Source: Eutreptiella sp. 'Long Island Sound 2002' (taxonomy: Eukaryota > Euglenozoa > Euglenophyceae > Eutreptiales > Eutreptiaceae). Taken from it: 64,000 nt of DNA. The position numbers were made by a program, and so were the translations under genes. Each line of letters starts with the position of its first letter. Positions within the stretch are counted from its first letter, which is position 1. The notes below the pieces were generated by a model. The model was not told the origin of the DNA. It did no database searches and was given only the letters and a program-made list of their open reading frames with translations. Shown here piece after piece: positions 25,032 to 55,200 of this stretch. The DNA is taken from assembly GCA_964036045.1 (NCBI GenBank), contig OZ038380.1:117599699-117663698 (forward strand). Reading direction: 5' to 3'.

Positions 25032-25512
25032 TGTAACGGCAGCAGTGACAGCACTCAGATTATACATCAATGTGATCAGAATTTCGATGATTCTCAGATG
25101 TACATTATTGCAGTAAATTTTCCGCTTGTTTTCATGTTTTCCGTTCGCCGCCAGATGTCGCCTGTGAGCGCGCGTCGAGTCGCATTTGTCTTTCGTGATT
25201 TCCCAATCGGATTTATTTAAATGATTTCGAATGATTTCACGTTGTGTCATTATGTGCGATGAATGCGCATTGAGACTCTATGTCTGCTCCATTTTTGTAG
25301 ACCGGGTTTTCTGACTATTCATATTCCACCATGGAGTTCACTGGACTTACAAGTGCTTCGCATATGTCGCTCCCAGAGGCCGGATATGGGTCTGAATAGG
25401 GTCATGTGGGTTCGGAGATATCAGGGGCAGTGTCGGGCGTTACGACCCCTGGGGCATCAAGGCTACAGGCTTCGCAGTTACAAGAAAGATCAACCACTAT
25501 GCAGCGGTTACA
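25032..25512 (+). repeat. Element D 5' LTR (481 bp)
   Basis: This is a direct repeat of 33920-34400, starting TGTAAC and ending GGTTACA. It is flanked by CTCGC on the left and by the primer-binding site on the right. Confidence 0.95.
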
Positions 25513-28418: not shown

Positions 28419-28566
28419 AGCAGGAGAAGAATGGGTTGACGAAGGACAAGTACAGGACGTGCAGACCAACGTCGAAGAAGAATGGCAATAGGGAAGCCAA
28501 CTTGACCGAAATCCCAACACTGGGGTTGAGTGGCAGGAGATAAAACCCATCAGGGTAGTTGGGGCG

Positions 28567-30200
28567 GTGGATGGACGCTGCTGCTCCGGCCTCCTGTACC
28601 CTGCCTGGGTCCTCAGCGCTGTCCGGCGAGGCAAGCAGCGCCAGTTTGTCTGCTGGATCCAGGTGAGAACTATGGATGGTAAGGTTAAACTTGCCAGATG
28701 TCTGATTGACAATGGTTCAGAGGTTAATCTGGTGAGGAAAGGCTTTCTGCAGGAGGATGAGGCGAAGATGTCCTCGACCCCTGTCCAGCTGGAGGGAGTC
28801 AGCGGACATCGCCTTGACGGTGGCAACAGAGAAGCAGAATTGGCGGTTAGATTGGTGAAACAATCTGTGTGGAGCGTGGAAGAGACGGTCACGGAGGAGT
28901 GGTTTTCGGAAAATTCTATGAAGCCAGCATAAAGTATGATTCATTCCTGGGTCAACCCTGGCTTCACGCTCACCGTGTGTCGCCCATGGGACACAGGACA
29001 TGCTTCCTCCAAGATCCGTCGACCAGCGACCCGTCCGACTTGTATTATCTGCACCCATATACCAAGAGTATCCACCAATTCAAGGAGCGAAATAAGCTGC
29101 ATATTCAGCAAGATGGGCAGGAATGGACAGGGAATCAAGAAGAATTCGACGAAGGAAAGGTGGAATCATTGAACTGCAAGAAGTGGAAGTCAGTTTCTTA
29201 TCGTGTAGGCGACAAATGGCGGGACATTCTGGTGGATTATTTCGAAAGGAACCACAATTTTCGTCCTCAAGTTGATGCCTTTGCAAACAAGAAGAATAAA
29301 AGATTTCCGAAGTTCTACGACGCCTGGAGTGAGGACTGGTCTGAACCTCTATGGATCAATCTGCCCTTCGACGTTTTTCCTCGTGTGGTGCAGAAGCTGA
29401 AGCAATCCGGCGCAAAGGCGATTCTAATTGTCCCCAACTGGCCAAGACAATCTTGGTTCAAGGACATTATGGACATTTCAATCGACATTGTCGAGCTACC
29501 TCACAAGGAGGTGAAGCTGTATTGCGCAGACAATGGCAAGCCTTTGCCACAGCGTTCGTGGAGCACGTTGGCGTGCTTACTTGACGGGAATCTGGGAGAT
29601 TATTGGCAAGATGACAGTGAAATGGGAACAGAAGAGGTCATCTCAAATTCCTCAAGAATCGACGAAATTGAGGTGGATGAAGACGATCGAGAGCGGAATC
29701 CCGACGTAACGTCACGGAAGGAGGGAAGGACAATCGGCGTCCCTCAAGAGAACGCCTCCATCCATTACAACTCGTCCCCATCAGACAAGAATCAAGCCAA
29801 AAATGTCAAGATTTCAAGCAAGAATGATGACAAATCTCCAAGAATCTCGCCTGAATTGACAGGAATGCAGCTGAATTCGTCCGGCCATCCCTTCAAGACA
29901 TTCGTGGACCCCTTTCATTGGTGGGATCCCACGGAGGAGCGAGCTCAGGTGAGCTCCATTCGCCAACAATGCTACGAAGAAGTTTGGAATGAAGTGGCCA
30001 AGAATATGAGACCACGACCAACAATTCGCAAATTGGTGGACATAATTTCGGTGATTAAATGTGGGAATCAGGTCGACGGAGACAAGATATCTGCAAGAAG
30101 GGACGCAGTGTTCGAAGATTATAAAGATGATGTGCTGAGTGGGAAGTTGTGGAAAAACCCCGAATTCGATGTGAAAATGGGGAAGCCAAGATTGAGATAA
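28567..30200 (+). pseudogene. Element D protease and methyltransferase-like domain
   Basis: The protease N-terminal half is in one frame (28567-28932) with active-site loop LIDNGSEVNLV, where Asn replaces the usual Thr or Ser of D[ST]G. The frame then shifts near 28880 and the C-terminal half reads YDSFLGQPWL in 28869-30200. At about 29196-29564 follows a domain with VDAFANKKNKRFPKFYD, WSEDWSEPLWINLPF, and ILIVPNWPRQSWF. This resembles phage/DIRS adenine-methyltransferase-type folds (DVFAS..N, W.NPPY/FPPF, VP.W...W). The D/N-P-P-Y/F motif here is NLPF, so methyl transfer is doubtful. A low-complexity polar linker leads towards RT. Confidence 0.8.
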
Positions 30201-31018
30201 TCCAAGGCTCAAAGGTGCACAAACAACGTCCATTCTATCTACACGGCACCAAAGCAAATGCCCTGCGAAAGATTATTGAGCGCAACCTCTATGAGTTCGA
30301 TTGGTTGGAGGGCTGCATGAGTTCTGAGTGGTGTTCAGCACCATTTACTGTGCCAAAACCCCCCCTGCTGACCAATCCAGCATACATGCTTGGCGTCTAG
30401 TGGTGGATTACAGAGCCCTGAATGCCGCCACGGTACCAGACGCGCATCCCCTTCCTTTAATCGAGAAGGAGATCGCCGCGAGAGCCAAAGGTAAGCTCTT
30501 TACTGTGTTGGATTTGCGCCATGGCTTTCACCAAATGCCACTTCGAAAGGGGGATAGGCATTTGACGGCAATGTGCACGCCCTGTGGCACTGTCCAGTGG
30601 ACTGTACTGCCGATGGGTCTGAAGAATGCGCCGTCGATGTTCCAGAAGATGATGGAGACTATTTTATTTCAGAAGCACAAGTCTCTGGATTTACAAGAAC
30701 TCTGCAGCATCTACATTGACGACCTTCTGATTGCCACGCCATTGGGAAAAAACTTTGATGAGTGCCTGAAGTTGCACGAAGAACAAGTTCGCAAAGTTCT
30801 CGCAGTCCTTCGACAAGAGAAGCTCGTGTGTGGACCCAAGAAGGGCAAAATGTTCCTCCAGAGCGTGGAATTTTACGGCTTTGTCTTGGAAGATGGGACA
30901 GGAAGACCAGCCCGAGGGAAAATGGCTGCCCTGCAGCTCTGGGAAAGGCCTAAAACCATCACGCAGCTTCGTGCCTTTTTAGGCTGCTGCAATTATTACC
31001 ACGAGTTCCTTCCTCTAT
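30201..31018 (+). pseudogene. Element D reverse transcriptase
   Basis: Pre-RT residues RKIIERNLYEFDWLEG and EWCSAPFTVPKP lie in one frame up to about 30360, where a C-run indel shifts the frame. The rest is 30328-31018: WRLVVDYRALNAATVPDAHP, FTVLDLRHGFHQMPL, VLPMGLKNAPSMFQKMM, the catalytic IYIDDLL, then FYGFVLEDG and LRAFLGCCNYYHEFLPL. This is a normal gypsy RT palm and thumb. The sequence then breaks off where the RNase H should start. Confidence 0.9.
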
Positions 31019-32578
31019 GTGGATTGGACGAAGATGTACAAGGAGGACAGGTTCTTTGGGTCTGTATACCACAAGTTGGAAGGGGACAAGCCTTACGACT
31101 CTGAAGAGACGTCTGATTTCAAAATCCAAGGCGACAAGTTTTTTTGGCAAGGACGGATTTGTGTTCGTGATTGTCTAATTGACCAATATGTCAAACATTG
31201 GCATCGGAATGAGACAGCCCACACACATTCTCGTGTTCTGGAGCAGGAGCTACGACACAGAGTGTACACACGGGACCTCAAGAGTGCCTGTGAACGAGTT
31301 GCCAAAGGATGCAAGCAATGTCAGGCAACCATCCCCAAGAATCAAAAGGCAGAATGACTACTGAAGGGATTACCAATTCCTGAGAGGTTGTTCGACAAGG
31401 TGACGGCGGATGTCTTCGAGTTGGGACAAATCCAAGAGGAACGTCTCTACACGAGGAAGCCTATCGATGGGGTTTTGTTAATTCAAGACCGCCACAGTGG
31501 CTACATCCAAGTCCTCCCTTGCAACACGAAGCATCTCACCCCGGAAATGGCTGCCAAGTGGACTGCAAGTCAGTGGATGAGTAACTGGGATGTTCCCAGT
31601 GAAATTCTGACGGACAGTGGGAAGGAGTTTATTGGGACTTGGTGGGAGAACATGTGTGCTCTATTTGGAGTTCATCATCTTCGTGCCCGAGTCTACGACC
31701 ATCGAGCTCTCCCTGCTGAACGCGCTGGAAGAATTCTTATCAACATTCTGAGAAAATTCCTGGCGACTGAAAAGGACTACAATTGGTTGGAGACAATTTA
31801 CTGTGTCTTGAGGAGATACCATCGGACCAAGAATTACACTGGATTAAGTCCTAATGAGCTTGTTTTTGGTTGTGAGAAGATGGGTCCAGGACCAGTGATG
31901 TATCATCCAAGGCAGTGCTACGACGCCTCACAATGGTTTGAGAGGATCAAGGATTTAGAGTCCAAGTGGATCCAAGCCAACGTGGAGAGTCAAGCGGATT
32001 GGTTGAATTTCAAAAATAAGTCGAGAACGCAAGGAAAACCCTTCGAGAAAGGCCAGCAAGTTTGGCTTCGTAAGTCAGACGATACCCTGAAGGACGACAA
32101 CAAATTGTTACCTTTGTGGGATGGCCCATTCCAAGTCAGTGGTCAACTAAGTGAGACTACATTCAACATTGAAATCCAGCCAGGCAGGCATCAAGAAGTA
32201 CATCGGGACCGTTTGAAGGCAAAAGTACCCTGCCCCAAGGGAAGGTTCAAGCCTCTCTATTGGACTTCGAAGTACCTGAGCGACAGGAAGATGGTCACCA
32301 GCAGTTTCGAGTTGGAGAAGATTCTTGATTACAAGAAAAATGCTCGAAACAAGTGGTACTTTCTGTGCAGATGAAAAGGATTCGGTCCAGAAGAAGACAA
32401 ATGGGAGCCAGCTTCAAGCTTTATCGATGGGTATACGGACACTTTCATCAAGTTCCTGAAGAAACATCCTGAGATTGACCGTGGGCTCTCGCTGATCAAA
32501 GATTGTGTCACCAAGGAAGACTTACAAGCACAAGAAGAAGCTCCAATTGTGGCAGAATCAATTCGAGACAAGATCTGA
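31019..32578 (+). pseudogene. Element D integrase and chromodomain
   Basis: The zinc finger is near 31190-31330 (HWHRNETAHTHS, CKQCQ), and the DDE core is at about 31390-31830 (TADVFELGQ, ILTDSGKEF, PAERAGRIL). The C-terminal segment with WLRKSDD and GPFQVSGQL follows, then a chromodomain (FELEKILDYKK, KWYFLCR, then KGFGPEEDKWEPASSF). Two in-frame TGA codons interrupt it, at 31355-31357 and at 32372-32374. The second falls exactly at the conserved Trp of the chromodomain (CRWKG), consistent with TGG to TGA. The frame ends at 32578. The RT thumb to integrase distance is only about 60 codons, so RNase H has been deleted. Confidence 0.9.
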
Positions 32579-33909
32579 TCAGAATTTGAATCGCCGAAAC
32601 TCTCCAAGAGGTTTACGGTCGACATATACCCTTGGCATTGGGACAAAACAGTCCTGACGCATCGTCTATGTGGTTCGATGAACAGATGATGGGACATTCT
32701 GGGGTCATCCTGGTCATTCCATTCATCATTCCCATCATGGTCATCATGTGAATCATGTGCTTCATTGTAGATGATTTCCATCGGAAGTTCCGAAAGGCCT
32801 TTATCCTCAACCACGACGAAACTCTCGTGTTTTGCTGTCGACTGGACCCCTCTACTCGCCTTGGGAAGGACTCGTTCGAGTTCGTGCTCATTACAGAGAT
32901 TCTGGCACATGACTGAGTCTGATGCATTTCATGTGTTTGACGGATGAGAATGTCATTTCAATCAGCTCTTACATTGAGACTGTTGGTTTGTTTTTCAATC
33001 GACCGCTGTCAAAGGGCTTATATAGACCAAGTGACAACGATGGTGTTCTTACTTGTGTCGACTCGCTGTTCATCTGTGGATTGTGTTGGAATCCCCCTCT
33101 GAATCAGCTCAATTTTGGCAAATTCCTGGTACCAAGCATTGGATGCTTATACATGCTGGGACTATAATGAGTCAATTACCCCTTCTGGCTCATACTGAAT
33201 TAAACATGAAGCCCTGGAGACAATACTGACAGTGTGGTCGCCACTCAATGGGTTTTCTTGGCTATCATTACTTACATGATTGGATTTCCATCATGGGGAT
33301 TCATCATCATCATGAGGATTTGACCTGGATTGGCTATGAATGAGAACTGGATTTCCGTTCAGCACAAAACGCAGTGTCTATCCACAATGAGTTGGACCTA
33401 TATTGGCTTGCTGTGAACTTCGCCGCCCTCCATCCGTGTGCGATTCACTGATTTTGGTCTCAATTCAGTCACATTTTGTACCATAATCTGGCATCTGGTC
33501 TCATGACTGCAAATGACACCGACCAGTTTCACATATCTTGGACTCCATGAAGGGATACCGTATTTTTTGGACGCTCGACGACATGGCGACACTCGTTTTC
33601 TGTTTTCTGGCAGTGGAATGTCAGATCCTGATTTCATCATGGATCATGGATCTTGATCATGCATGTACATTCTTCACTCAGACTTTCAATTTTCGAATTT
33701 TCGAACTTGAACGAAGCTTTTTCTGTGTGCCCTAAGGTACCTATGCGTTTCATTCCAGTCGATGGCCATCGCGAAGCACAGATCTCAGCACAATTTTGCT
33801 CAATTCAGCTCAATTTCACACATTTTGCCTTAGATTAGTCGGTTTTTGGTCACTTTAGCCGTTTCGTTCACTTCACTTGACCCAGCCTGACATACTGGCG
33901 TATGTTTTC
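32579..33909 (+). other. Element D 3' non-coding region
   Basis: About 1.3 kb lie between the last pol stop and the purine tract. It is moderately AT-rich, with many TCATCATGG-like repeats, and holds no ORF with family features. It is probably the 3' UTR of D. Confidence 0.7.
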
Positions 33910-33919
33910 AGAGGGGGAG
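33910..33919 (+). other. Element D polypurine tract
   Basis: AGAGGGGGAG immediately precedes the TGTAAT start of the 3' LTR, the standard position for plus-strand priming. Confidence 0.9.
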
Positions 33920-34400
33920 TGTAATGGCAGCAGTGACAGCACTCAGATTGTACATCAATGTGATCAGAATTTCCATGATTCTCAGATGTACATTAGTGCA
34001 GTAAATTTTCCGCTTGTTTTCATGTTTTCCGTTCGCCGCCAGATGTCGCCTGTGAGCGCGCGTCGAGTCGCATTTGTCTTTCGTGATTTCCCAATCGGAT
34101 TTATTTGAATTATTTCGAATGATTTCACGTTGTGTCATTATGTGCGATGAATGCGCATTGAGATTCTATGTCTGCTCCATTTTTGTAGACCGGGTTTTCT
34201 GACTATTCATATTCCACCATGGAGTTCACTGGACTTACAAGTGCTTCGCATATGTCGCTCCCGGGGGCTGGATATGGGTCTGAAGAGGGTCATGTGGGTT
34301 CGGAGATATCAGGGGCAGTGTCGGGCGTTACGACCCCTGGGGCATCAAGGCTACAGGCTTCGCAGTTACAAGAAAGATCAACCACTATGCAGCGGTTACA
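33920..34400 (+). repeat. Element D 3' LTR (481 bp)
   Basis: This is a direct repeat of 25032-25512 with about 11 substitutions and no length change. It ends GGTTACA directly before the second CTCGC. Confidence 0.95.
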
Positions 34401-34405
34401 CTCGC
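34401..34405. repeat. Target-site duplication of element D, right copy
   Basis: CTCGC matches 25027-25031. G's coding sequence resumes at 34406 with CTG AAT GAG. Confidence 0.95.
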
Positions 34406-34971
34406 CTGAATGAGAAACCATTTCCGTCGCGAGAGCCTAGTCAGCCGCGACAGCCTGGGGCGGGTAAGGATTTGTCAGACCAGGCATGGTGGGATTCGTC
34501 ATCTGAGTGTGGTACGGCAGAGATGACCTCCGACGAGGACACGGCTAGCGAGTCATCTGTTTCCCTCTTGAAGGGTAGGTCGATATCGTCACCGTATGCC
34601 CCTGACCATTTTATGGCTGGATGGGGTTACACCAGAGCCGACCATGATCATTTGTACAAGGGCGATTTGCCCTCGAGTACAGATGGATTTAGTCTGATGT
34701 CTCTAGAAACTAGGTTGGAAACTACAAAGTCCAATGACCGCCCCGGTGCATATGCCCTCAATCACATATCAAAAAGAAAAGAAACCTCGGCCGAAAGGCA
34801 GCAGCAGAAGCAAACACGCAAAATAAACTTCAAAAGCATATATCAGAAGGGAAACTTAACAATACATCCAGAAATTAGTAAAGACATCATTAGTTGGGCA
34901 CAATCCAACGACATAATCATTGAGATAGATGCATTTGCAAAAAATCGTTCTTCATCTGTACTGACGCGTTC
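34406..34971 (+). pseudogene. Element G pol, segment between insertions D and F
   Basis: This is a continuation of the protease-dUTPase frame after D. It is a polar, Ser/Glu-rich linker without stops (LNEKPFPSREPSQPRQPG, SSECGTAEMTSDEDTASES). It ends with the first quarter of G's methyltransferase-like domain, at about 34880-34971 (IISWAQSNDIIIEIDAFAKN). Element F interrupts the codons for RSSSV. The domain resumes at 52235, in frame after one GTAC is removed. The four bases 34968-34971 (GTAC) are the left F target duplication. Confidence 0.9.
34968..34971. repeat. Target-site duplication of element F, left copy
   Basis: GTAC directly precedes the TGACGCG start of F's left LTR and recurs at 52231-52234. 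Four bases is short, but the in-frame joining of G supports it. Confidence 0.85.
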
Positions 34972-37900
34972 CCGTGGGGGGCCGGCCACGGGACGCTGCG
35001 GTGACACGCACAGGTGAGCAGGCAGGCAGAGCACTACGCTCACAAGGGCATCAATACGCTCGTGTCATGTGACAAAGCGTTTCAGGATCCTTGCCACTCT
35101 GCAACAAGGGAACGAAAGTATGTACAGCAACACATCAGGATATGTACACATGGGGTTAAGACTGGACTGGGGTAAGGGCATTACAGGACAATAGACACTC
35201 AGTCCCAACTCATATCCCAATCCCAGGTCCGACCCTCTCAGTGGCTGGTGGGGGCGGGGGCTCAAACACAACCCATGCCCTGCTCAGTCCCGACCCTGAA
35301 ACCCTGCCAATGAGAGAGGTGTCCCGCCCAGCCACAGGCGAGTTCCTGGGAACCAAGCAGCTCCAAGGCCAACCGACAGTCGCTCCCTATGCTCCCTTAA
35401 CGGCAGGTCCCAACTCCTCTCTGAGTCAGAGATATGGTCCCGCCATTATCACCCAGGAGTTGGTAGCTGAAAATGGGCTGTTTCAGCCCAAACTGATATT
35501 AACTCAAAAGTCCCCGAAATTGACCCCTCGTCCGGACCCGTCAGAGGTAGGGACGAGGCAACTGACCCTATGCCCTTCGAGTACGAACTCCCTGGAGCCC
35601 TCACCCAACCTGGTTCCCTCTGAGGTCCCGCCATCAGGGCAACACCGATTCGTCAAGTGGGGTCATGATGCCAAAATCACCAAAATTGGCGTCATTCCCA
35701 CGCGTGGCTGGCCCGGCCAGGGCAAGGCCAATGGTCCACAGGTTAGGAGGCAGGACCCTAGGACTTATATCTGAGTGTACAACTTGAAATTAGGTCCGGG
35801 CTCCCTGTGGGCATAGAGAAATGGGGCCGCCAATTGACCACATGGAAGGGGGAAATTGGGGTCCCAAATGGGGTCATTTTGGCTGCTTGAAATGAGCCAA
35901 AATTCGGTGTGCTCCCAATAGTATATCTCCACGCCGGCTTGGAGATCGGATCCGCCATTCCATACGCGATCCACAGGGAGTCCAACGAAGACTCCCATGC
36001 CCTTGGCTCTCAAAGATCCCCATGCCACTTGGCGTGGTGACGATCCCAATTGGGTCTACAGATGCCAAAATGGCAAAATTGCCCACACTCACTTTGGGCT
36101 AGCGCCTTAACGAAGGTTGCTCCGCTTCGCCCACGTGGTGTGTGAACCATGGGAACCAACATACATAACACCCATGTCATATATGGTCCATTGGTCCATG
36201 CGTCCGGCGTGCACGGGTGGGCTCAACATAGTGCACGGCGGGCAGAAAAAGTGGAAAGTTGCTCAAAATGGCCAAAAATGCGCACACTCATGGTTTGGGC
36301 AAATGAGGCACATGCCTGACTCGGACCGGAGTGTGCCATAGGATTGGTTTCAAGTCACATGTGTCCAACATATCTTTTGGGCGTCGCCCAACTCCTCCAA
36401 TTTTGGGAATGGCAGGGTCGCCAAGTGAGCCCATGATTTGGGATAGTCCCAAATCGCCAACATGGCGGCCACGGTATGCCAAGCCCAAGAGGAGTTAATC
36501 GCCGGGTCCAAGATATGTTGGGCACCGAAGTATGTACCCTCATATCATACTTGGGTCATGATGTCAATTGAGCGCAACGTTGAGATACACGGTCGCCACT
36601 TGACATCATGACGGGCCAAAAACGGCAAAATTGGTACAAAGACACACAAAAGTGCCTTGAAAGGTGCACAATTATATTATAATATCTTCCGCTTGGATCG
36701 TGCAATCAACTAATCCTTTTAAACAGAATGACTTGACACGATTGACCTTCGATTCCGCATATGTGCTCCACTTGGGGTGCCTTGAAAGGTTACGCGCGCT
36801 ACTTCCCAAGTGGGCACATGAAAATATGGAAAATTGCAAAACACACACCTTGCTCCCAACGCATCGCTTCGGGATCGCCACACAAGCTTCCCTTCACGAA
36901 GGTTAGGCTTGCAATTGATCGTAGGGAGTATGGAGAAGGGGCTTGCACAATATGAGGTCCATTGGCGGGCTTGGCTTGGACCGATGGACCCGCCAAATGG
37001 GCACGCAACACAACACAAGGCACATACTCCATATTGCCCAAAACTGTAGCTCCCCCCACTATATGTCATGCCCCTCCAAGGGCATAACTTTGTGTCAATC
37101 GCTCATAGGGACTCAAGGAGAGTTCCTATGCAACACCAACACTTGCGCGCTACACTCAGAAGTTATCTTAACGCACGCAATGTCATGGCCAAAGAGTTAT
37201 AACGCAAACTCTACCCTCTTGACCATGATCCATTACACTAGCGCGCATGTGTGGAAACGCAAGGCATATAAAGCTTCCTAAATTACGTCGGGAGTATTGT
37301 GAATACATCCCACGTTTTCTTATTGTCATTCCTCGCAAGCGGCACGAGATATGACCCTTACAAGTGGCCTCACGAATCAACTTTGTTTTGCCCATATCTT
37401 TAAGACAAATGGAGGGCAGGATAAAAGGAAAGTTGATTCGTGCATAGGGAAGCACGTAGGTCCACTCGAAAGAGGTCAAATCAAGTGCGGGGATGTCGAA
37501 GTCGAAAATCTGCTTTCGACATCCTGAAAAATTCGGATTAAGGTTGCGAGTGTAAGATGTGAAAATTGCGGAAGCATCCATGCAGTTCCTGAAGACTTTG
37601 GAGCCTTCGTGACGGATTGCGTTAAAGTTTCCATTAAAAACAGTTAAACTGGCGGTTACGGTAAAGTCGCGATCCAACCGCCAGCAGTCAAAACAGTGAG
37701 TATCGGAACGGAAGCGTAAAAATTGACGGAAACAATATGAAAATAAAACCCTGTTGATTCCTGATATTCTGATACACAAATATCCGCTGGCGGTGCATCG
37801 GTTGCCGATGCGGGGCTTTACGGCACGGAACACGCTCCCGCCGGGCTCGCACCGGGCGTCAACGGGCGCATTCCGTACATGGGGTTAGTGGACCGGAGAC

Positions 37901-37986
37901 CGGTCTTCCCTTCCATACATGGGGTTAGTGGACCGGAGACCGGTTGTATGCCCTACCCTAGCCATGGGATTCTGGGTACCGCTTCA
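34972..37986 (-). repeat. Element F 3' LTR (3,015 bp)
   Basis: This is a direct repeat of 49206-52230. In element orientation it starts TGAAGCGGTACC and ends GAACGCGTCA. Near its U3 start a 40-bp-period repeat (tacatggggttagtggacc, at 37876 and 37916) is present twice. A 9-bp perfect stem (GATGTCGAA/TTCGACATC) lies near 37491-37523. A 216-codon open frame in element sense (37183-37833) occurs in both LTR copies but not in A; I do not call it a gene. Confidence 0.95.
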
Positions 37987-37997
37987 CCCCCATCCTT
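37987..37997 (-). other. Element F polypurine tract
   Basis: In element orientation AAGGATGGGGG directly precedes the TGAAGC start of the 3' LTR, confirming the LTR boundary and the minus orientation. Confidence 0.85.
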
Positions 37998-39487
37998 AGA
38001 GCAAACCCTGGGGGGGGCTCGATAACACCCACGCATGGCAGCGGGTACCCAGGACCACTTCCTGAAGGGGGGGGGGTGTCACATCCTCACTTCAGGCTGA
38101 TTCAGGGTAGGCTGCCCAAATCCCACAGTAAGATAGGTATGATGCTGTAAAAGCTCGTAGCACATGTATAGTATCAAGTATCAAGTCGCGGGTCTTGGCG
38201 GCGATTGTTCGGCATCCAAAGGACCCGTTAACCCATACCAGGCGCACCGGGTGCCGGCTGCTACGGTCACCACCACAGTGGCAGTGGCATACACGGCCAA
38301 CATAGGCGACACACGACGACCGAGGTGGTCCCACAGGTCGAGAGCGACCACAAAGATCCATCAGGCTACCCCAAGCTTCCCAAGGCCCGCCGACTGGGGA
38401 GAGTCCCCACGGGTCCTTCCTCGGGCGCACCATGTCCATATCCATACGACGCGAGTCCTGAGTGATACAGCCGAACTCCTTAAGGGATCTTAAGGGAGCT
38501 CCTCCTGAAGGGATCCGGCATCAAGGCCGTCTTTTCCCTCGCCCTATTACCACGAAGGCCATACATGAGGGAGTCCTCATGCAGTGTGGGCGGAGGCGTC
38601 GACTCCTCAAACCACCAGTTTCCCAGGCAGACTGACCGAGGTCAGGAGCACCGGAGGCCGCCATCCGACTGCAAGTGCGTCTGCGAATCGGTAGGCTCAC
38701 ACTGGGACTGACAGTGGCGGACCGCTGGGAGTGTAGTCAGGCAACTGGGCTTCCCGCCTGGCGCCATCAGGATCTCCACATCACAGCCAATAGGGCAACA
38801 CGGTATCACAGGCACTCAAACAGAAGAATATGTAATGCGGTACTGGTCCAGGCTGGACCCTGTGTATGAACCTGTAAACGGCGACTCAGGGCGCCTCTGT
38901 ATTGCGATTCGCATCCCCTGGGGGGGAGAAAACAGTCCATCTGTCGGTGATGGGCTGACAATCGTAACATACAAATGCACATATCCTGGGGGACAGAGAA
39001 AGCAAGCAACAATCAGGTAAACAGGCGTGTAAACACATTCTGGACAGAGTGCCAAACCACGCCACGGTCAGGATAAGGCAAATGCAGGAGGGTGGACAGG
39101 ATGACGCCTGAGTTCAGGCATATATAGTCTCGAGACACACGTCGACTGGTCTGGATTCCGCAAGTGCCATGGAACCAGACCACACACCAAAAATTCGCAA
39201 TGCCGATGACAGCGGCATCCGTTGCGCAACGTCGTATGGGCTTCAAGGCCCCAAGAGCTCAGAAAATATGAAGGTCAGTCGCCCTACCTGGTTGCCCAAG
39301 GATTCAGCAGGGGGGTGAGTGACGAATAGAAGAAGAGAGGGGCCATCCTCCCCTGGATTGAGCAGGGGGGGGTATATGGCCACTCTGATGGCAGGTACCG
39401 GAAGATGTGAGAGAGCAAGCAAGTAAGGGACAGTCCGTCGACCTCACAAGCGCTGAAAACACATCAGGGGACAGCCCAGGGCGCTGA
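37998..39487 (-). other. Element F 3' non-coding region
   Basis: About 1.5 kb lie between the pol tail and the purine tract. Its right 0.7 kb aligns with positions 1-715 (element A). It contains G-runs (for example 38010 and 38067) and no family-supported ORF. This is probably the 3' UTR. Confidence 0.7.
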
Positions 39488-39637
39488 TCAGGCACCCCTG
39501 GCTGCAATCGCCCGGGTGAGTGCTGCCAAGTCCGAGACATGGATCTTGGTCTTGTGCTTGCGGATGTACTCCATGAAGGGAGTATTGACCCGCGGCAGGA
39601 ACAAGGAGACGGGTTCCCAGGTGTCGTCGGACGGCCC
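39488..39637 (-). CDS. Element F chromodomain second half, downstream of an in-frame UAA
   Basis: The pol frame meets TAA at 39638-39640 after FKVRWRG, exactly where chromodomains have an aromatic residue (WRGYG). The frame then stays open for about 50 codons: GPSDDTWEPVSLFLPR, FMEYIRKHK, ending ARGA and TGA at 39488-39490. The tail holds the second half of the chromodomain. Element A has the same TAA and the same open tail with the same RGA end. It may be expressed by readthrough, or the family may use a truncated pol and the tail may be a remnant. Confidence 0.6.
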   Translation of the reverse strand, partial: GPSDDTWEPVSLFLPRVNTPFMEYIRKHKTKIHVSDLAALTRAIAARGA

Positions 39638-44470: not shown

Positions 44471-44473
44471 CTA
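44471..44473 (-). promoter_or_regulatory. In-frame UAG between gag and pol (candidate readthrough stop), copy F
   Basis: Gag ends GCC CCC TAG CGG AGC CCC, and 17 open codons lead in frame to the pol ATG at 44419. The stop and its 3' context are the same in element A (13380), although the two elements differ at many other sites. Confidence 0.6.
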
Positions 44474-47400
44474 GGGGGCGTCGGTTGTGGAGGAAGGGGT
44501 GTTCTCCTCCGCATCAAACTCGTTGACGCCCTTCTTCCTTCCACCTTTCTTACCCTTCTTGTCCTTGTCCTTGTTCTGGTCATTCTGGTTGTTCTCCTTG
44601 TTCTTGTTGTCCGACCTGGGGACCCAGTTCCGCTTGATCTCCTGGATCTCCTTGGCCAACTCGGTCCCCACCGACGACATCAGCTTGGCCAGCTCGTCCT
44701 TGTCGACCTCCACTTTGGCTTCCCGGATACCCGCGGGCGCACGCTTCTTCGACCCGTGCGCCTTCTTGTAAGCCTCCGTGTCGGCCTTGTGGACGGGGCA
44801 TGTTCGGTGGTCATGGTTGAAGCCTCGGTTCCTCCCATAACACACGAAACAGCCCTGAGGGTGAGCTCGTATGAACTCCCCAAAGGACAGCGGAGGGTCG
44901 CCAATGCGGCGAGGGTCCCTCTTCTCCTGCTTCCTCCAACCCTGCTGCAGGGGCTTCCAGTTTCCCGGTTTGCTCCCCGCGCTCAGGTTTTTGGCCACGA
45001 AGGCACAAACGGCAACTTCGGCGGGCTCATCGTGGTCGTCATCGTCGACGAGAGTCTCATCGCCGCCGGCTCCCGCTGCGTCCATGGCAGCTTCCCCGCC
45101 AGGTCCCTCGCCAACGTAGTTGACGTCGCGGTCGCCGGGCCTCAACCCGCGGGTGTGGTGGAGGTTTCGGTACTCCTTGAGTACTTCCTCGCCAACCCAC
45201 TCCAGGATCTCGTCGCAGCTCATCCGCGCCGGGATGGGCTGCAGACAGATGGTCTGGCCGCTCAACTCACACTCGTCAAGGCGCCACATCGCGGTCTTCT
45301 CGCGATCGCCCGAGACGGTGATGAGGAGAGCGTTCCGCAGGGAGTGCCGTTTGACATCCCGGGCCACGTTCTTCTTCGTCCAAGCCAACACGTTCGTATG
45401 ATACTCTTTGAGGAGCATCATCTTGACCGTGTGGTTGGACTTGGCCCTCTTGGATTCCTCCTTGGTGACCCTCTTGATCCATGCTTCCGGCAGCATGGAG
45501 AGCAGGCGAGCCTGCTCGTCACCCTCGTTCCAATCCTCCACGTTGCGGCGGCAGAGGGTGTATTTCCCTCGGAAGTCTCGCCAATCTCGTAGGCGGATCT
45601 CCCGTCCATCATGCTCAAGCTTGATGGACTTCCAGCGCTTGGCCGCCACCTGCGGAGCGTCCACCCGCTCCTGCTCGTTGAGCCACTTCTTGGCTTCCTT
45701 GAGGGTCTTGATTCTCCCCTCCTTGGTCGCCACGAAGTATAGCTCTCCGAGCACTTCCGGCAGGCGGTACCTGAACCGTCTGAAGACATATCTCTCCGCA
45801 TCCGCGGGAGGCAGGTCTTCAGTGACGGTCAGCCCCCAATCGTCCAGCTTCTCCAAGAAGCGGTCGAGGTTGAGGGGGTTACCATCGTACATGGGGGGCT
45901 TGATGTCCTTCAAGTCTTCCCACACGGCGGCATCCGCGGCCTTAGAGACCATGAACGCCGGCCGCGAGGTCGACCGAGGTTCCCATCGGCCTCGCCCACG
46001 GACTCCCACGGCCGCCACGTCCATCTCCTCCATGGAATCCCTGTGGCTACGCTGCGGTTCCTCCATGTACGCTGAACCTAGATGTTCACGCCGTACTCCT
46101 TCCATGTACGCATCCTCATCACGGCGCCGGCGGCTGCGTTCAGCGGCCTCCCGTCGTACACCACGCGGCGGGCTGATGTCGAACTCCTCCAGGTCCAGGT
46201 CCAGGTCCTCACCTTCGCCGACATCCCACTCCACGTCTCCTCTGGGGACCTCATCCCTGAGTCCACCATAACGTCCACCAGCCATTGGGATTGGCCCAGG
46301 GGCTTGTGCGGGGCACCGGGGGCGTACCGGTGTCCGCGGTGGAGCACGGCGGTTGCGGTACTCCGCGCTGAGCCACTCATCACGCCAATCCTCACTGCCA
46401 CTGCCGGGCGGCACGCGTTCGTTGCGGCGGCCCGCGCTGTGGTGAGAGGGGGCGATGAGAGAGGGGGAACTGGCGCTGGGGCGACTCCTGGGGGCTCCGC
46501 CGGGGGCGTGGGGTCTGCCTGGACCTGGTCCGGGTCCCCAGCCGTCGTCCGACGAGCCAGACTCCAGGGGTGGGCGGTCGCTGCCGACGCTCCCACGGGC
46601 TTCCAGCGCGTCCAGCCTCTGCTGCAGGCCGCTGATGACCGTGTTCAGCTGTCTGATCTCGGCCCTGGCGATGTCCAGCTCTGTCTGCGCGCGCGCGGCA
46701 ACCTTGGAGATGCGAGTCATCTCGCCCTTGCCCGTGTCTACCTCGCACTCGAGGGAAAAGACCCTCCTGCGGAGGTAGACAATCCACCGCCAGGTGGTAT
46801 CCGGGTCGCCGTTCCCTGGTGGGTCGTCGGGGTCCCCAGGGGGTTTTCCAGGAGGGCCTCCGCCGGGTCCGCCCGGTCCAGGGGGTTCTCCCCGGCCCGG
46901 TGGTCCGCCTCCAGGGGGTCCACTTGGTGGGCGTCCTCCAGGAGGTCCTGATGGTCCTCCGCCAGGGGGTCCCGGTGGGTCTCCGCCGGGTCGCCTCGGT
47001 GGGTCCGAGGATGGGCGCTTCTTCCTGATGCCGAAGTCCATGTCGTCATCCTCGTCCATGTCGCCCCACCTGGACTTCTCGGTCTCAGAAGACTCTGAGC
47101 TCCGGTAGGGAGGAGGGGGATCCTCATCCTCACCTTGCGGTTCCATGGGGACGTCTCCGCCTCCTCCGCCCGTCCAAGCCACCACTTGGCGATGTCGGCG
47201 GCCTCGTTCATCCCCGTCACTGGCGGTGAAGAAGGGGTCACTGTCGTGGGGGTTTCCACCCGCTGGCCTCCGCGGCCTCTCGGGGGTCTTCCCCTTGCCC
47301 TTCCTCCGTCGATGGACGGTAGGGCCACTGCTCCCACTGCTGCCCGTGTCGGCCTCGTCCAGCGTCATCTTGGAGGAGGCGTCCCCTTCGAAAAGTTTTC

Positions 47401-48790
47401 GAAGGGTCTCCACACGTGATCCTCCCGGGGGAGTTTCGCGGCGGAGTTTGGCCTCTGCCTCCTCCATTGCGGCGGCGGTGGCTGCGGCAGCCCGCACTTC
47501 GGCTTCCTCCCGAGCACGAGCCGCCTCGGCTGCCCGGGCCTGCTGCAGCCGCGCCTTCTGCGCTTCCAACGCCGCCAGCTCCGCCTCCGTCTTGGCCTTC
47601 TCCTCAGCGACCTTCCGTCACGCGGCCTCGATGGCGTCCTTCTTGGCGGCGTCCGCCTGGGCCTTAGCCGTTGCCTCGGCATGGGCCCATTCCTCCGCCT
47701 CCTTCTTTGCCCTCTCTTGGGCAAGCGCCTCTTCCAGCGCCCTCACCTTGGCCTCCCTGCAGGCAATGGCCTCCTGCGTCAGGCGGGCTTCCTCGTCGGC
47801 TGCCGCCAACTCACCGTTGACCTGGGCAGTCGCTGCCCCATGGGCGGCTACGGCCGTGAGTCCGGCCGCAATGGCCGCCACGGTCTGGGCGTGGATGGCC
47901 ATGCCATGCGCCCACTCCGCAGCCTCCTCCTGGGCGATGCCGACGGCGCCCTCCACGGCGGCGCTGTGCTGCCTGGCCCGTTGCCGGACAACCCGAAGGT
48001 TGCAGGGCACCCCACAGGCGCGCTCACAGGCGCGCGCCACGTCCCTGTCGGGAGCGACGCTGCTGCTGGAGCTGGCCTGGTCGGCCGGCATCCTCCCGCG
48101 GTGGGCCGACTCCACGTCGCTGCTGGGGCCTGCTGGGGCCTGCTGGGGCCTCAGGAGCAGCGGACGGGGCTTGGCCTTGGTCTGCCTGGCGACTTGGATG
48201 AAGTCGCCGAGGGTGGCGTGGCCGGGGTGATGACCACCATTGGCTCGTTGGGGACTGGGGGCTGGGGTTCCGCCCTTGGCGCCTTGGGCGGCTTCGGCGG
48301 CCAGGGACTCCTGGTACTCCCGCCATCTCCGGTCCCTCTTCCTGTCCCCGGCGGACCGCTTCTCCTTCCCCGGAGACGCGCTGCTGCTGCACTGCAGCCT
48401 GCGCTCGCTCCCCGGTTCCGGGAAGTTCTTCTCGATCATGTCCCACATGGAGACGTTGATCGAGGCGCCCGACGGGTACTCGTTGGGCATCTCGTCCTCC
48501 TCAAACCCGTCGGGACGCAGGCCTTCACCGGGCCTGTCCGGCCGGGTCCACGTCCTCCAGCGCTTGCGGCGGAAGCGGTACTCGTACCCTTCCGCCCGCA
48601 GCCACTCCTCCACTGCCCGCAGGCGGTCCTCCCCCATGTCCTCGCGGAGCTCGAAGCTCCCGGGCATGCCGCCTTCGCACTGGGGGTGGCTGTGGCGGTA
48701 GTGCTGGTCCCAAACCAACCCACGCAGCAGGCGTGCCGCATGGGGGTGGGGCCGCGGCCACATCCTGCCCGCTTCCTGCCAGTTTACCAT
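44474..48790 (-). CDS. Element F gag (about 1,440 codons, one nonsense codon)
   Basis: Unusually long for Gag. The N-terminal domain (MVNWQEAGRMWPRPHPHAAR) is followed by a Ser/Pro-rich linker and a long Ala/Glu/Arg coiled coil. At 47618-47620 TGA stands where A has CGA (EAARRK), a CpG transition that splits the frame into 48790-47618 and the rest. A Gly/Pro collagen-like tract (about 46790-47000) and an Arg/Ser-rich region follow. The capsid-like domain spans about 45150-45950 (PPMYDGNPLNLDRFLEKLDD, LLSMLPEAWIKRVTKEE). A long-spaced zinc knuckle CFVCYGRNRGFNHDHRTC (CX2CX8HX4C) and a Lys-rich tail end the protein. Gag should assemble particles and package RNA. Confidence 0.88.
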
Positions 48791-49194
48791 GGCAGCGGGG
48801 GGCGTACTTGGTCTTGAGGTCCTTGGTTCGCACTCGTTCCACTCAACGAACTGGCGGTGGTTGTTGAGGCGGGTGCTGCAGCACTGGATTGGGAGTGCGG
48901 CTGGTGCTGGTCAGCCGGTGGTTGTGGAAGTGGTTGACGCGGCTCTGCTGGTCGGCCGATGGGTCTGGTCTGTCCACTTCCTTCACGGTCGCGGTGCGGT
49001 CAGGGCGATGCTCTGGACGGCGCTGCTGGCTCCGTGACGAACTCGGCGCTGTCGCTGGATGGCGCTGCGAGCCGCTGCGCTGCGCTGCGAGCCGCTGCGC
49101 TGCGCTGCGAGCTGCGAGCTGCGAGCGGCTGCGCCGCGCTGCTCGGGGTTGCTGGCCCCGAGTGGCACGCGAGGGCTGGGTAACCCCGCGGCGG
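48791..49194 (-). other. Element F 5' leader
   Basis: About 400 bases lie between the primer site and the gag start. They contain a GC-rich tandem stretch at 49064-49150, built of GCTGCGAGCC and GCTGCGCT units, that A's leader lacks. No coding sequence can be supported. Confidence 0.65.
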
Positions 49195-49205
49195 TGAAAC
49201 GCTTC
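49195..49205 (-). promoter_or_regulatory. Element F primer site, self-complementary to LTR 49318-49328
   Basis: In element orientation GAAGCGTTTCA directly follows the LTR. The LTR carries TGAAACGCTTT (49318-49328), giving ten Watson-Crick pairs plus one possible G-U. There is no TGG start as in tRNA-primed elements. The pairing partner lies 113 nt before the end of U5, a reasonable place for the transcript start if R begins there. Confidence 0.62.
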
Positions 49206-52200
49206 TGACGCGTTCCCGTGGGGGGCCGGCCACCGGACGCTGCGGTGACACGCACAGGTGAGCAGGCAGGCAAAGCACTACGCTCACAAGGGCATCAATA
49301 CGCTCGTGTCATGTGACAAAGCGTTTCAGGATCCTTGCCACTCTGCAACAAGGGAACGAAAGTATGTACAGCAACACATCAGGATATGTACACATGGGGT
49401 TAAGACTGGACTGGGGTAAGGGCATTACAGGACAATAGACACTCAGTCCCAACTCATATCCCAATCCCAGGTCCGACCCTCTCAGTGGCTGGTGGGGGCG
49501 GGGGCTCAAACACAACCCATGCCCTGCTCAGTCCGGACCCTGAAACCCTGCCATCGGGAGAGGTGTCCCGCCCAGCCACAGGCGAGTTCCTGGGAACCAA
49601 GCAGCTCCAAGGCCAACCGACAGTCGCTCCCTATGCTCCCTTAACGGCAGGTCCCAACTCCCCTCTGAGTCAGAGATATGGCCCCGCCATTATCACCCAG
49701 GAGTTGGTAGCTGAAAATGGGCTGTTTCAGCCCAAACTGATATTAACTCAAAAATCCCCGAAATTGACCTCTCGTCCGGACCCGTCAGAGGTAGGGACGA
49801 GGCAACTGACCCTATGCCCTTCGAGTACGAACTCCCTGGAGCCCTCACCCAACCTGGTTCCCTCTGAGGTCCCGGCATCAGGGCAACACGGATTCGTCAA
49901 GTGGGGTCATGATGCCAAAATCACCAAAATTGGCGTCATTCCCACGCGTGGCTCGCCCAGCTAGGGCAAGGCCAATGACTCACAGGTTAGGAGGCAGGAC
50001 CTAGGACTTCTATCTGAGTGTACAACTTAAAATTAGGTCCGGGCTCCCGGTGGGCATAGAGAAATGGGGCCGCCAATTGACCACACGGAAGGGGGAAATT
50101 GGGGTCCCAAAATGGGGTCATTTTGGCTGCTTGAAATGAGCCAAAATTCGGTGTGCTCCCAATAGTATATCTCCACGCCGGCTTGGAGATCGGATCCGCC
50201 ATTCCATACGCGATTCACAGGGAGTCCAACGAAGACTCCAATGCCACTGGCTCTCGAAGATCTCCATGCCACTTGGCGTGGTGACGATCCCAATTGGGTC
50301 CACAAATGCCAAAATGGCAAAATTGCCCACACTCACTTTGGGCTAGCGCCTAAACGAAGGTTGCTCCGCTTCGCCCACGTGGTGTGTGAACCATGGGAAC
50401 CAACATACATAACACCCATGTCATATATGGTCCATTGGTCCATGCGTCCGGCGTGCACGGGTGGGCTCAACATAGTGCACGGCGGGCAGAAAAAGTGGAA
50501 AGTTGCTCAAAATGGCCAAAAATGCGCACACTCATGGTTGGGGCAAATGAGGCACATGCCCGACTCGGACCGGAGTGTGCCATAGGATTGGTATCAAGTC
50601 ACATGTGTCCAACATATCTTTTGGGCGTCGCCCAACTCCTCCAGTTTTGGGAATGGCAGGGTCGCCAAGTGAGCCCATGATTTGGGATAGTCCCAAATTG
50701 CCAACATGGCGGCCACGGTATGCCAAGCCCAAGAGGAGTTAATCGCCGGGTCCAAGATATGTTGGGCACCGAAGTATGTAACCTCATAACATACTTGGGT
50801 CATGATGTCAATTGAGCGCAACGTTGAGATACACGGTCGCCACTTGACATCATGACGGGCCAAAAACGGCAAAATTGGTACAAAGACACACAAAAGTGCC
50901 TTGAAAGGTGCACAATTATATTATAATATCTTCGGCTTGGATCGTGCAATCAACTAATCCTTTTAAACACAATGACTTGACACCATTGACCTTCGATTCC
51001 GCATATGTGCTCCACTTGGGGTGCCTTGAAAGGTTACGCGCGCTACTTCCCAAGTGGGCACATGAAAATATGGAAAATTGCAAAACACACACCTTGCTCC
51101 CAACGCATCGCTTCGGGATCGCCACACAAGCTTCCCTTCACAAAGGTTAGGCTTGCAGTTGATCGTAGGGAGTATGGAGAAGGGGCTTGCACAATAGGAG
51201 GTCCATTGGCGGGCTTGGCTTGGAGCGATGGACCCGCCAAATGGGCACGCAACACAACACAAGGCACATACTCCATATTGCCCAAAAAGTTAGCTCCCCC
51301 CACGATATGTCATGCCCCTCCAAGGGCATAACTTTGTGTCAATCGCTCATAGGGACTCAAGGAGAGTTCCTATGCAACACCAACACTTGCGTGCTACACT
51401 CGAAAGTTATCTTAACGCACGCAATGTCATGGCCAAAGAGTTATAACGCAAACTCTACCCTCTTGACCATGATCCATTACACTAGCGCGCATGTGTGGAA
51501 ACGCAAGGCATATAAAGCTTCCTAAATTACGTCGGGAGTATTGTGAATACATCCCACGTTTCCTTATTGTCATTCCTCGCAAGCGGCACGAGATATGACC
51601 CTTACAAGTGGCCTCACGAATCAACTTTGTTTTGCCCATATCTTTAAGACAAATGGAGGGCAGGATAAAAGGAAAGTTGATTCGTGCATAGGGAAGCACG
51701 TAGGTCCACTCGAAAGAGGTCAAATCAAGTGCGGGGATGTCGAAGTCGAAAATCCGATTTCGACATCCTGAAAAATTCGGATTAAGGTTGCGAGTGTAAG
51801 ATGTGAAAATTGCGGAAGCATCCATGCAGTTCCTGAAGACTTTGGAGCCTTCGTGACGGATTGCGTTAAAATTTCCATTAATAACAGTTAAACTGGCGGT
51901 TACGGTAAAGTCGCGATCCAACCGCCAGCAGTCAAAACAGTGAGTATCGGAACGGAAGCGTAAAAATTGACGGAAACAATATGAAAATAAAACCCTGTTG
52001 ATTCCTGATATTCTGATACACAAATCTCCGCTGGCGGTGCATCGGTTGCCGATGCGGGGCTTTACGGCACGGAACACGCTCCCGCCGGGCTCGCACCGGG
52101 CGTCAACGGGCGCATTCCGTACATGGGGTTAGTGGACCGGAGACCGGTCTTCTCTTCCATACATGGGGTTAGTGGACCGGAGACCGGTTGTATGCCCTAC

Positions 52201-52230
52201 CCTAGCCATGGGGTTCTGGGTACCGCTTCA
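49206..52230 (-). repeat. Element F 5' LTR (3,025 bp)
   Basis: This is a direct repeat of 34972-37986. It ends GGTACCGCTTCA on the plus strand directly before the second GTAC. Substitutions and a few short indels distinguish the copies, mostly within 49.2-50.4 kb. The promoter should lie here, but no TATA box can be assigned with confidence. Confidence 0.95.
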
Positions 52231-52234
52231 GTAC
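52231..52234. repeat. Target-site duplication of element F, right copy
   Basis: GTAC matches 34968-34971. G's methyltransferase-like domain resumes at 52235 (TCGGTAATGC). Confidence 0.85.
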
Positions 52235-55200
52235 TCGGTAATGCTTTTTATTCTCAACACACTGCAAAAGGGCCCTACAAGGGATCCCTCTCCCAGCCGT
52301 GGAATAATAAGTGTCTGTGGGTACACCCCCCCCCTCATCTTTACCAACGTACAGTACAGAAACTCCTCTTCGAGGGTTGTTCAGGGTTAATGGTTGTTCC
52401 TGTCAGGAAGGACAAAGCCTGGTGGTGGACTTTGGGAGAGATAACCCTGGATTGGATTGATGTTCCGTCGGGATCTAAAATATTTCAGGGTCCCAATGGG
52501 GATCCGTTGTCTGTACCGCAAGGAGATAGTTTTCGGTTAGTATATTTTGGTTCCATAGGAATGCAAAAAAGTGAAGAAGAGGATGACGAAGATGGGGACC
52601 ATGAGTCCACAAAGGCGTTACGACAACAAAACAGGACTTGGCATGCCTCCGTAGATCCATACCCCCCCAACAGATACGGAGAGCAAGGTAGTACCACAGG
52701 TGTAATCCACGATGATTGGTCCCCTCCCCTGCCTTCTTTACGTACTCCCCCTAAAGAGGCAAATCTTGACAATCATTTAGGTGCAACAGAACGAGGTTTT
52801 CAAGTGTGTAATAGTCGGTATTCACGAAGTATCCGGTCAGTAATGAAATCGGATGAACAGTTTCCGGAATGCCAAGACTTACGGGATCTAATTCTCTCGG
52901 AGTTTCAAGATAGTCTTTTTAAGTCAAAAAGGTACGATGAGGTAACAACGAAAAACCTTGACAAAGGGGGAGCATTTGGTACAGTAAGGTTAGAGGCTAT
53001 AGAAGGGGCCAAGCCCAAGTCCTGTAAAGCAGTCCGGGCCATCGGATTGCGGGAAAAGGCGTTGTTGGAGCGCATGAACGAGTTTGAAGAGAAGGGATAC
53101 ATTTTTAAAGCGCAGGACCACCACGACACTTCATGGGTAAGTCGGGCATGTTTAGTGCCCAAATCTAATGGCAAATGGCGGTTGGTCATTGATTATCGGT
53201 GGCTTAGTAGCCAATTAAAGGGTGAAAATTTTCCGATACCGGTAATTGAAGATCAACTTGCCAAACAAAAGGGAAATTTTCTGTGGACGCTTGTGGATTT
53301 GGAGGATGGCTTTCATCAAATGCGACTGGAGGAGGAAAGCCAGAAGTACACCGGGTTCATAACACCTTTTGGTGTATACTTTTGGAAGGTCCTTCCGATG
53401 GGAGTAAAGGTAGGTGCCTCAGGTTTTCCAACGTACGGTGGCCCACATCTTGAATGGATGCAGTAGATCAGGGCCATACATAGACGATTTCTCAACAGGC
53501 ACAGGCAAACCTCCTCCTCCTCCGAAGTCCGGAAAGGGGAATTGCTGGACAGTCATGCATTTGAAGAAGCTATGCCTAGTGATCCAGAACGATTGCACAA
53601 GTGTAAGCAGTATCATTTGGAAGCAGTTCGTGAGTGCTTCAAGCGTCTTGCCGATGCGGGGTTAACAGTTAAGCCCTCCAAGTGCTTTTTGTTTATGCGG
53701 CAAGTAAAATACGTTGGCCACATATTGAGGGAAGGTACACCATTGCCGGACCCCTCGAAGTGTTCGGCCATCGCACAATGGCGATGGGAAGATATTAAAA
53801 CTCCTAAGGCACTAAAAGGTTTTTTGGGATTGGCCAACTGGTATAGTATATACATACACAAATATGCGGAATACGCCGCACCACTAATGGAGGCGCTCAG
53901 GGGTAAGTATTTGTATGAAACCCCCGATCCAGGGGACAAAGGGAAGCTGGACGGCAATGGAAGACCCATAAAACGCAAAAAGATACCAACAGAAAAAAAC
54001 ATTGATTGGACAGAGGAAATGAAAAGATCTTTTTCAGCACTGCAAGCCGCACTCGCTAGGGAAATTGAGCTCTTTTTGCCAAACCCGAGTGGTGCCTGGG
54101 TCATTGAGACCGACGCCAGCGACTTCGCAGTTGGGGGCGTTTTAAAGCAGGAACAGGCTCCAGGGGACTGGAGGCCTGTAGCATATTCTTCACGCAAGCT
54201 TCAAGGGACAAGACAGAAAGGCAAAAACTTAGGCCAAATGGGCCGGACACCAAGGGAAAAAGAGACCTATGCCCTTGTGTGTTGCCTCCTGAAGTTTCAG
54301 AGTTGGATAGGGTTTTCCGAGGTAATAGTCAAGACAGACCATAGTAGTATAGTACAATGGTACAAGGAGGATTTATGCACCATATCCGGACCCTTGGGGC
54401 GAAGGGGCCGGTGGCATGAATCTCTCAGTAGATTCAATATCATAATAGAATACAACCCCGGGGTGAACAATGAGGAAGCTGACACCCTATCTAGATGGGC
54501 ATACCCGGCGGGGGCTGCCCAAGACACCAATTTTCATGGTTCAGATAGGGACCTAGAAGGGTGGAAGGCAGAAGAACAAAAGAAATGTGCAGAGAGACAA
54601 CCATTGCTTCAATCTAGATACCCGGAGGCCTTTGGGGCTTTTGATGGCATGACACCAGAGGCCACATTTTTACATTTTTCTGGACAGGAACAAGGGTTGA
54701 AGCTGCTACAAGTCTCCTGCAGGGCTTCTAAGGGGCTTAAACAAATGTGTGCAGCCCCGGATGATTTCAATTTTGAGGAATATGAGGATTTCGACACATA
54801 TCTTCTTAATGCGCTTGCGGCACCCGTTCCTAGGGCTTCTTTTGAGGAAGAAGGGTCACTCAATGCTGTTCAAAAAGAATACCCCCTCTCAGAGCTTCCA
54901 TCCTTCCGCATGAAGGATCATGGGCTCAATGAAGTTTCTAGGCAATGCCAAGTGTTGAGTTGGCACATGCCAGGGGTGGAACTCCTCAGTCTTCATAACA
55001 TAGAACACATATTCCTACCCCCGGAGATACATATTTTGCACGAAAAATGGGATCAATACTACCAAAAGGATGAATATTTTAAGAACATATGGGGTAGATT
55101 AAAGCGGGAAAAAATGTACAGCATGATGATCATTCGTACCTCATCTTACATGAAGAAAAGGTGCGTCATCAAGGTAAGATATTTGTACCAAAGGACATTA

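What the first reader, a model, noticed from the sequence alone, without database searches (positions are those of the whole stretch)
28869..52556. Methyltransferase-fold-like domain between protease and RT in three diverged Ty3/gypsy families
D (29196-29564), F (43205-43558, minus) and G (34880-34971 joined to 52235-52556) carry the same pattern between protease or dUTPase and RT. The pattern is [VLI]DAF[AS], an aromatic-rich spacer, W...LW[IV][NH]-x-P-x, R...K, then [AM]xLxVP, a Trp or charged run, and [IV]xLPxG. A broken copy lies in A. It resembles the adenine-methyltransferase-type (Dam-like) domain known in phages and at the C-terminus of DIRS pol (VDLFAS...FPPF...P.WP.Q.W). Here it sits upstream of RT in Metaviridae. 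The catalytic D/N/S-P-P-Y/F/W motif is NLPF in D, HCPRW in F and HPPPH in G, so activity is probably lost while the fold is kept. Its recurrence in three families whose RTs are far apart suggests an ancestral component with another role, such as nucleic-acid binding or a Gag-Pol spacer.
Basis: partly seen in the sequence, partly recalled or inferred. Interest (0 to 1): 0.87.

Follow-up and report, generated by a model that had tools for sequence, protein, structure and literature searches.

The report
Dam-type methyltransferase domain in gypsy retrotransposons
Several distantly related LTR retrotransposons in this eukaryotic genome carry, just ahead of their reverse transcriptase, a domain descended from phage-type DNA adenine methyltransferases; some families keep the catalytic motif while others have lost it yet preserve the domain, so it looks like a long-standing working part whose job is unknown.

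Summary
D (29205-29588), F (43160-43570, minus) and G (34871-34961, continued at 52235-52554) carry one homologous domain upstream of RT: a profile built without F or G rows finds D, G and F in the window (E 2e-63, 3.5e-18, 1.8e-14; next unrelated frame E=3). It belongs with phage T1-type Dam (PF05869): a genome copy of D and copies of two further families (H, J) exceed Pfam's cut-off in frame with RT. F stays below the cut-off, but its model's best viral-library matches are phage methyltransferases (E 7e-7). The order is that of Ty3/gypsy, not DIRS: domain before RT in all 28 loci where both were found. 'Activity lost' needs splitting: the D copy here is a minority variant of a family whose commonest motif is NPPF (25 of 48 readable); F (HCPR) and the G clade (mostly HPP) lack the catalytic Asn, yet show purifying selection. 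RT and domain trees agree on their main split. Dam in DIRS and cytosine methyltransferases in gypsy are known; Dam in this slot was not found in the paper searches listed. Activity and substrate are untested.

The parts
29205..29588 (+). Dam-like domain of element D (VDAFA 29271-29285; motif IV reads NLPF 29358-29369)
   Evidence: PF05869 E=4.8e-4 for the piece, below the curated cut-off; profile E=2e-63; coordinates
43160..43570 (-). Dam-like domain of element F (LDAFS 43508-43522; motif IV reads HCPR 43394-43405)
   Evidence: PF05869 E=5.4e-4, below the cut-off; profile E=1.8e-14; AlphaFold model mean pLDDT 86.8 matching phage methyltransferases
34871..34961 (+). Left part of the Dam-like domain of element G (IDAFA 34925-34939), cut by insertion of F
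   Evidence: assigned through uninterrupted relatives P0152 and L068
52235..52554 (+). Right part of the Dam-like domain of element G (motif IV reads HPPP 52324-52335)
   Evidence: profile E=3.5e-18; no Pfam Dam match; coordinates
12058..12467 (-). Decayed copy of the same domain in element A (same family as F)
   Evidence: 94% DNA identity to F with one indel
25032..34400 (+). Element D, LTRs 25032-25512 and 33920-34400, 5-bp target duplication CTCGC
34962..52230 (-). Element F, LTRs about 3.0 kb (34962-37986, 49206-52230), 4-bp target duplication GTAC, inserted in G
39638..44470 (-). F pol open frame: protease motif, Dam-like domain, RT, RNase H, integrase
   Evidence: protease and integrase matches below Pfam's cut-offs
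30328..31104 (+). RT of D (PF00078 E=4.5e-28)
52009..53466 (+). G open frame with the right part of the Dam-like domain and the start of RT (PF00078 E=1.2e-11)
24348..24728 (+). dUTPase of G (PF00692, in two adjacent open frames), upstream of its Dam-like domain

Best explanation
The segment is a Dam-type (phage T1 family, PF05869) methyltransferase domain that a lineage of Ty3/gypsy retrotransposons acquired long ago and carries in Pol between protease (or dUTPase) and reverse transcriptase. Shown: homology, fold (D and F), position before RT, presence in several families of this genome, purifying selection, and two motif classes. Inferred: it enters the particle with Pol. In families with an intact N-P-P-[FW] motif (D, J, K) it methylates N6 of adenine in the element's own nucleic acid, most likely the cDNA being made by RT, which would mark or protect the new copy. 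In families that lost the Asn (G clade mostly HPP, F HCPR; at least two separate losses on the small unrooted trees) the fold is kept as a non-catalytic nucleic-acid-binding or structural module of RT.
Confidence: 0.55

Rival explanations
1. The domain is non-catalytic in every family: a captured Dam fold used only as a nucleic-acid-binding or spacing module ahead of RT.
For: Motif IV departs from N-P-P-[YFW] in F, the G relatives and H, which still show constraint; F, with HCPR, is strongly amplified: the 150 copies scored are all at least 99% identical (only the best of 30510 candidates are scored).
Against: D, J and K keep NPPF or NPPW, and so do P0208, P0235 and P0238 from short contigs of unnamed organisms (NPPF), hard to explain if catalysis never mattered.
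Confidence: 0.27
2. The N-P-P class is an RNA rather than a DNA enzyme: it methylates adenosine in the element's RNA, for example to mark RNA for packaging or to avoid host sensing.
For: The leading PDB matches of both models are RNA adenosine methyltransferases (PCIF1, KsgA/Dim1, Erm).
Against: By sequence and in the viral structure library the closest relatives are phage DNA N6-adenine methyltransferases. PDB may simply lack a T1-type Dam (recalled, not checked).
Confidence: 0.12
3. The H-class (HPP, HCPR) is still an enzyme with altered motif-IV chemistry or a different acceptor base.
For: The D-x-F region and PP are largely kept, H is the usual replacement, and omega is 0.05 between two HPP copies.
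Against: No enzyme with this motif was found here; N is absent at position 1 in 12 of 12 G relatives, and [NDS]PP in 122 of 122 readable F proteins.
Confidence: 0.1
4. Chance resemblance or convergence: an unrelated PR-RT linker rich in W and P.
For: Single segments are short, and window G alone has no Pfam Dam match and no hhalign match to phage Dam (probability 2).
Against: Sequence, profile and structure evidence agree; G is linked through D, H and J at E 3.5e-18.
Confidence: 0.02

Closest known systems
Phage T1-type DNA N-6-adenine-methyltransferase (PF05869 Dam)
   Same: Order D-x-[AF]-[AS] ... N ... W ... W-x-N-P-P-[YF] ... P ... W; one D copy and copies of H and J exceed Pfam's cut-off; F model matches such enzymes
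   Different: Embedded in a retroelement polyprotein upstream of RT; F and the G relatives lack the catalytic Asn; a C-terminal stretch shared by D, F, G, H and J (LP ... [VL]-[FY] ... P), seen by eye
MT domain of DIRS retrotransposons (PMC3783388, passages read)
   Same: A PF05869 domain in a retrotransposon Pol
   Different: The paper lists RT, RNase H and MT in DIRS Pol, with a tyrosine recombinase and no aspartic protease or DDE integrase; here the domain precedes RT and is followed by RNase H and integrase. Direct sequence comparison was not possible
KnitGypsy-Dnmt3 and SymbioDIRS-Dnmt3 (PMC5890265, passages read)
   Same: A DNA methyltransferase inside Pol of a gypsy or DIRS element; [quoted passage not shown]
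   Different: Those are C5-cytosine enzymes, called structurally unrelated to Dam in that paper
dUTPase in the PR-RT slot of giant planarian Gypsy-like elements (PMC6431247, passages read)
   Same: An accessory enzyme in the same slot; G here has both dUTPase and the Dam-like domain
   Different: Different enzyme
m6A RNA demethylase (AlkB-like) domain in orchid Ty3/Gypsy (PMC9289625, passages read)
   Same: Ty3/gypsy element carrying an adenine-methylation enzyme
   Different: An eraser, in an additional open reading frame, recently acquired

Membership tests
PF05869 Dam | Score over Pfam's gathering cut-off (28.1 bits) | tested here: met
   Met by one genome copy of D (28.9), by J (36.4) and by H (38.7, 40.2). 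Not met by the window pieces themselves: D 20.3, F 20.1, G no match; K P0188 23.7, P0208 15.3, P0235 13.3, P0238 22.6, P0174 12.2 also below
PF05869 Dam | Rossmann-type methyltransferase fold | tested here: met
   Models of D (block-mean pLDDT 82-93 for residues 21-110, 72-83 to 150) and F (mean 86.8) match methyltransferases; D against PDB by Foldseek has no match at E<=0.001; G, H, J and K not modelled
PF05869 Dam | Motif IV [DNS]PP[YFW] | tested here: inconclusive
   Met by about half the readable D proteins and by J and K members; not met by F, the G relatives and H
PF05869 Dam | SAM-dependent N6-adenine methylation | not testable with these tools
   No assay
Ty3/gypsy (Metaviridae) | LTRs with short target-site duplication | tested here: met
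   D 5 bp, F 4 bp; G, H, J and K not examined
Ty3/gypsy (Metaviridae) | RT and RNase H followed by H2C2/rve integrase | tested here: met
   RT and RNase H over cut-off in F, D and H and G. Integrase matches: rve below the cut-off in window F, D, G and H; H2C2 over it in G and H only; F-family protein P0101 carries a precomputed PF00665
Ty3/gypsy (Metaviridae) | Aspartic protease upstream | tested here: inconclusive
   Motif visible in F and D; Pfam only below cut-off in F (E 0.009), none for the D piece
DIRS | MT domain after RNase H, tyrosine recombinase | tested here: not met
   Domain precedes RT in 28 of 28 loci with both; integrase-type matches in D, F, G, H; no tyrosine-recombinase family was listed for the proteins scanned

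The most novel reading that the evidence does not exclude
A Dam-type methyltransferase is an ancestral part of a large Ty3/gypsy lineage spanning several eukaryotes, and it has repeatedly turned from an N6-adenine enzyme acting on its own cDNA into a conserved pseudo-methyltransferase (HPP/HCPR class) that RT depends on, including in the strongly amplified F family of this genome.
Probability: 0.3. Interest if true: 0.78.

Novelty: new variant of a known kind. Interest (0 to 1): 0.6.

Why it matters
It extends adenine methyltransferases from DIRS to LTR/Ty3 retrotransposons, in the slot where others carry dUTPase. The same genome holds families with intact and with lost catalytic motifs, which makes the open question of what Dam domains do for retroelements directly testable. 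It also offers a naturally repeated enzyme-to-pseudoenzyme transition under measured purifying selection.

Tried and rejected
Sequence searches of PDB gave nothing meaningful. Foldseek of the D model against PDB: nothing at E<=0.001. PHROGs: D piece matched a DNA methyltransferase family at E 4.7e-4, F only an unknown family at 0.54, G none. IMG/VR scan with the J domain: no match. Host identity was not established; requests for PF02429, PF00504 and PF00046 did not complete. Five dN/dS rows (F link2, D linker, L072 vs L074, L072 vs L077, L075 vs L078) were out of frame; all five were redone in frame and only those values are used. With, F's linker (omega 0.15) is no more relaxed than its Dam domain (0.22), so F versus A does not single the domain out; the protein-level contrast does, mildly, as does D (domain 0.16, linker 0.52, few changes). 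Rows dropped: 48 of 96 D proteins and 2 of 124 F proteins did not cover motif IV; segments covered under 60% are blank. One search listed 120 of 350 matches; only those were classified.

Not in print: the searches were made, over open-licence PMC papers only. [quoted passage not shown] prior notice in subscription papers or Repbase is possible. A 2016 review on eukaryotic adenine methylation (recalled) was not held.
Full report
What is in the window. The window is a nest of LTR retrotransposons in a 2.28-Gb genome (C3:117599699-117663698). Self-comparison and junctions give: D 25032-34400, target duplication CTCGC; F 34962-52230 with 3-kb LTRs, target duplication GTAC; both inserted into an older element G, which has dUTPase upstream and RT, RNase H and integrase matches downstream. 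A (about 9600-19178, with more at 4-1925) is a diverged copy of the F family, interrupted by B (LTRs 1998-2757 and 8840-9598), whose pol carries a chromodomain.

The domain. D, F and G each hold a segment of about 105-137 residues upstream of RT. Scanned alone, the D and F pieces match Pfam Dam at E 4.8e-4 and 5.4e-4, below the curated cut-off; the right-hand G piece does not match Dam. Scanning the host genome with PF05869 gave 93 matches at E<=0.001, all over the cut-off, with 150 of 3814 candidates scored. These include new families H (L009, L015; NAPF) and J (L016, L017; NPPF), and a D-family copy with NPPF (L013). In L009, L013 and L015 the Dam, RT, RNase H and integrase matches lie in one open frame; the rve matches are below Pfam's cut-off. 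A profile from D, H and J rows recovers D, G and F in the window, with the next unrelated fragment at E=3. Against four phage Dams, hhalign gives probability 96 for the D/H/J profile, 70 for F alone and 2 for G alone. tblastn of the J domain against phages at E<=10 gave 997 records, the best at E 0.01; of the 20 listed, 16 are annotated under the match and 15 of those are named methyltransferase or methylase.

Position. I read 32 loci, which are 29 of the 93 places, chosen as the tool's best eight, for long open frames, or for unusual match ranges. My profiles found the domain in 31 and RT in 29; both in 28 (25 distinct places), always domain first and on the same strand. L021-L032 were cut with about 0.5 kb upstream and 1.6-2 kb downstream, so an RT upstream would have been missed there; L001-L008 have 1.5 kb and L009-L020 4 kb or more on each side. 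Two G relatives show the same order in an open frame. This is not the DIRS order in PMC3783388.

Two motif classes. D: 25 of 48 readable proteins NPPF; the window's NLPF is one of 4. J: NPPF 2 of 5. K (P0188 and relatives): NPPW 5 of 6. H: NAPF 16 of 22 loci. F: HCPR 81 of 122, [NDS]PP 0 of 122. Twelve G relatives, picked for spread from 150 matches: position 1 is H in 9, N in 0, PP in 11. The G query's 150 scored matches (of 13752 candidates) include many at 36-50% identity in open frames of 2000-2540 residues. The F query's 150 scored matches (of 30510 candidates, the best only) are all at least 99% identical, so F, without the Asn, has amplified recently. Relatives on short contigs of unnamed organisms: P0208, P0235, P0238 with NPPF and P0174, F-like, with HCPR.

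Selection and history. Nei-Gojobori omega: HPP copies L072 vs L074 0.05 (dS 1.9, near saturation); H L009 vs L021 and L023 0.14 and 0.11, ten other H pairs 0.11-0.47; F vs A 0.22, with protease 0.22, RT 0.12, linker 0.15; D 0.16 on 15 changes, its linker 0.52; J pairs 3.5, 0.28, 0.48 and G vs L068 1.15 on few changes. Identity to window F among 13 F-family pols averages 92.4% in the domain (12 rows), 92.4% in RT (11), and 81.7, 86.9 and 85.5% in the three linkers. RT and domain trees share {G, L080, L081, H, J} against {D, F}, with modest support. I infer one old acquisition and at least two losses of the Asn (F; ancestor of the G clade).

How it most likely works. Shown: a Dam-type fold under selection in the slot before RT. 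Inferred: carried into the particle with Pol; in N-P-P families it methylates adenine of the nascent cDNA; in H-class families it serves RT as a non-catalytic nucleic-acid or structural module. PMC5890265 thinks cDNA methylation likely for cytosine enzymes in DIRS elements, the nearest stated precedent.

Known or new. Dam in DIRS and cytosine methyltransferases in gypsy are in print. Dam in Ty3/gypsy between PR and RT was not found in the searches, with the caveat on PMC6338049 given under Tried and rejected.

Noticed in passing
34962-52230: F is a 17.3-kb element with 3-kb LTRs; the 150 genome matches of its Dam-like domain that were scored are all at least 99% identical, which suggests a recent, large burst.
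   Followed up: partly
24348-24728: G carries a dUTPase upstream of its Dam-like domain, so two accessory domains share the stretch upstream of RT.
   Followed up: no
1998-9598: B is a separate chromodomain-bearing LTR element, inserted in A; the domain profile found nothing in it.
   Followed up: partly
L032:469-735: Family K: a further diverged Dam-like domain (NPPW) ahead of RT, with a protease-like stretch before it in P0188 (by eye).
   Followed up: partly
44471-48910: F has two long frames upstream of pol (1048 and 430 aa) with no Pfam match over a cut-off.
   Followed up: no
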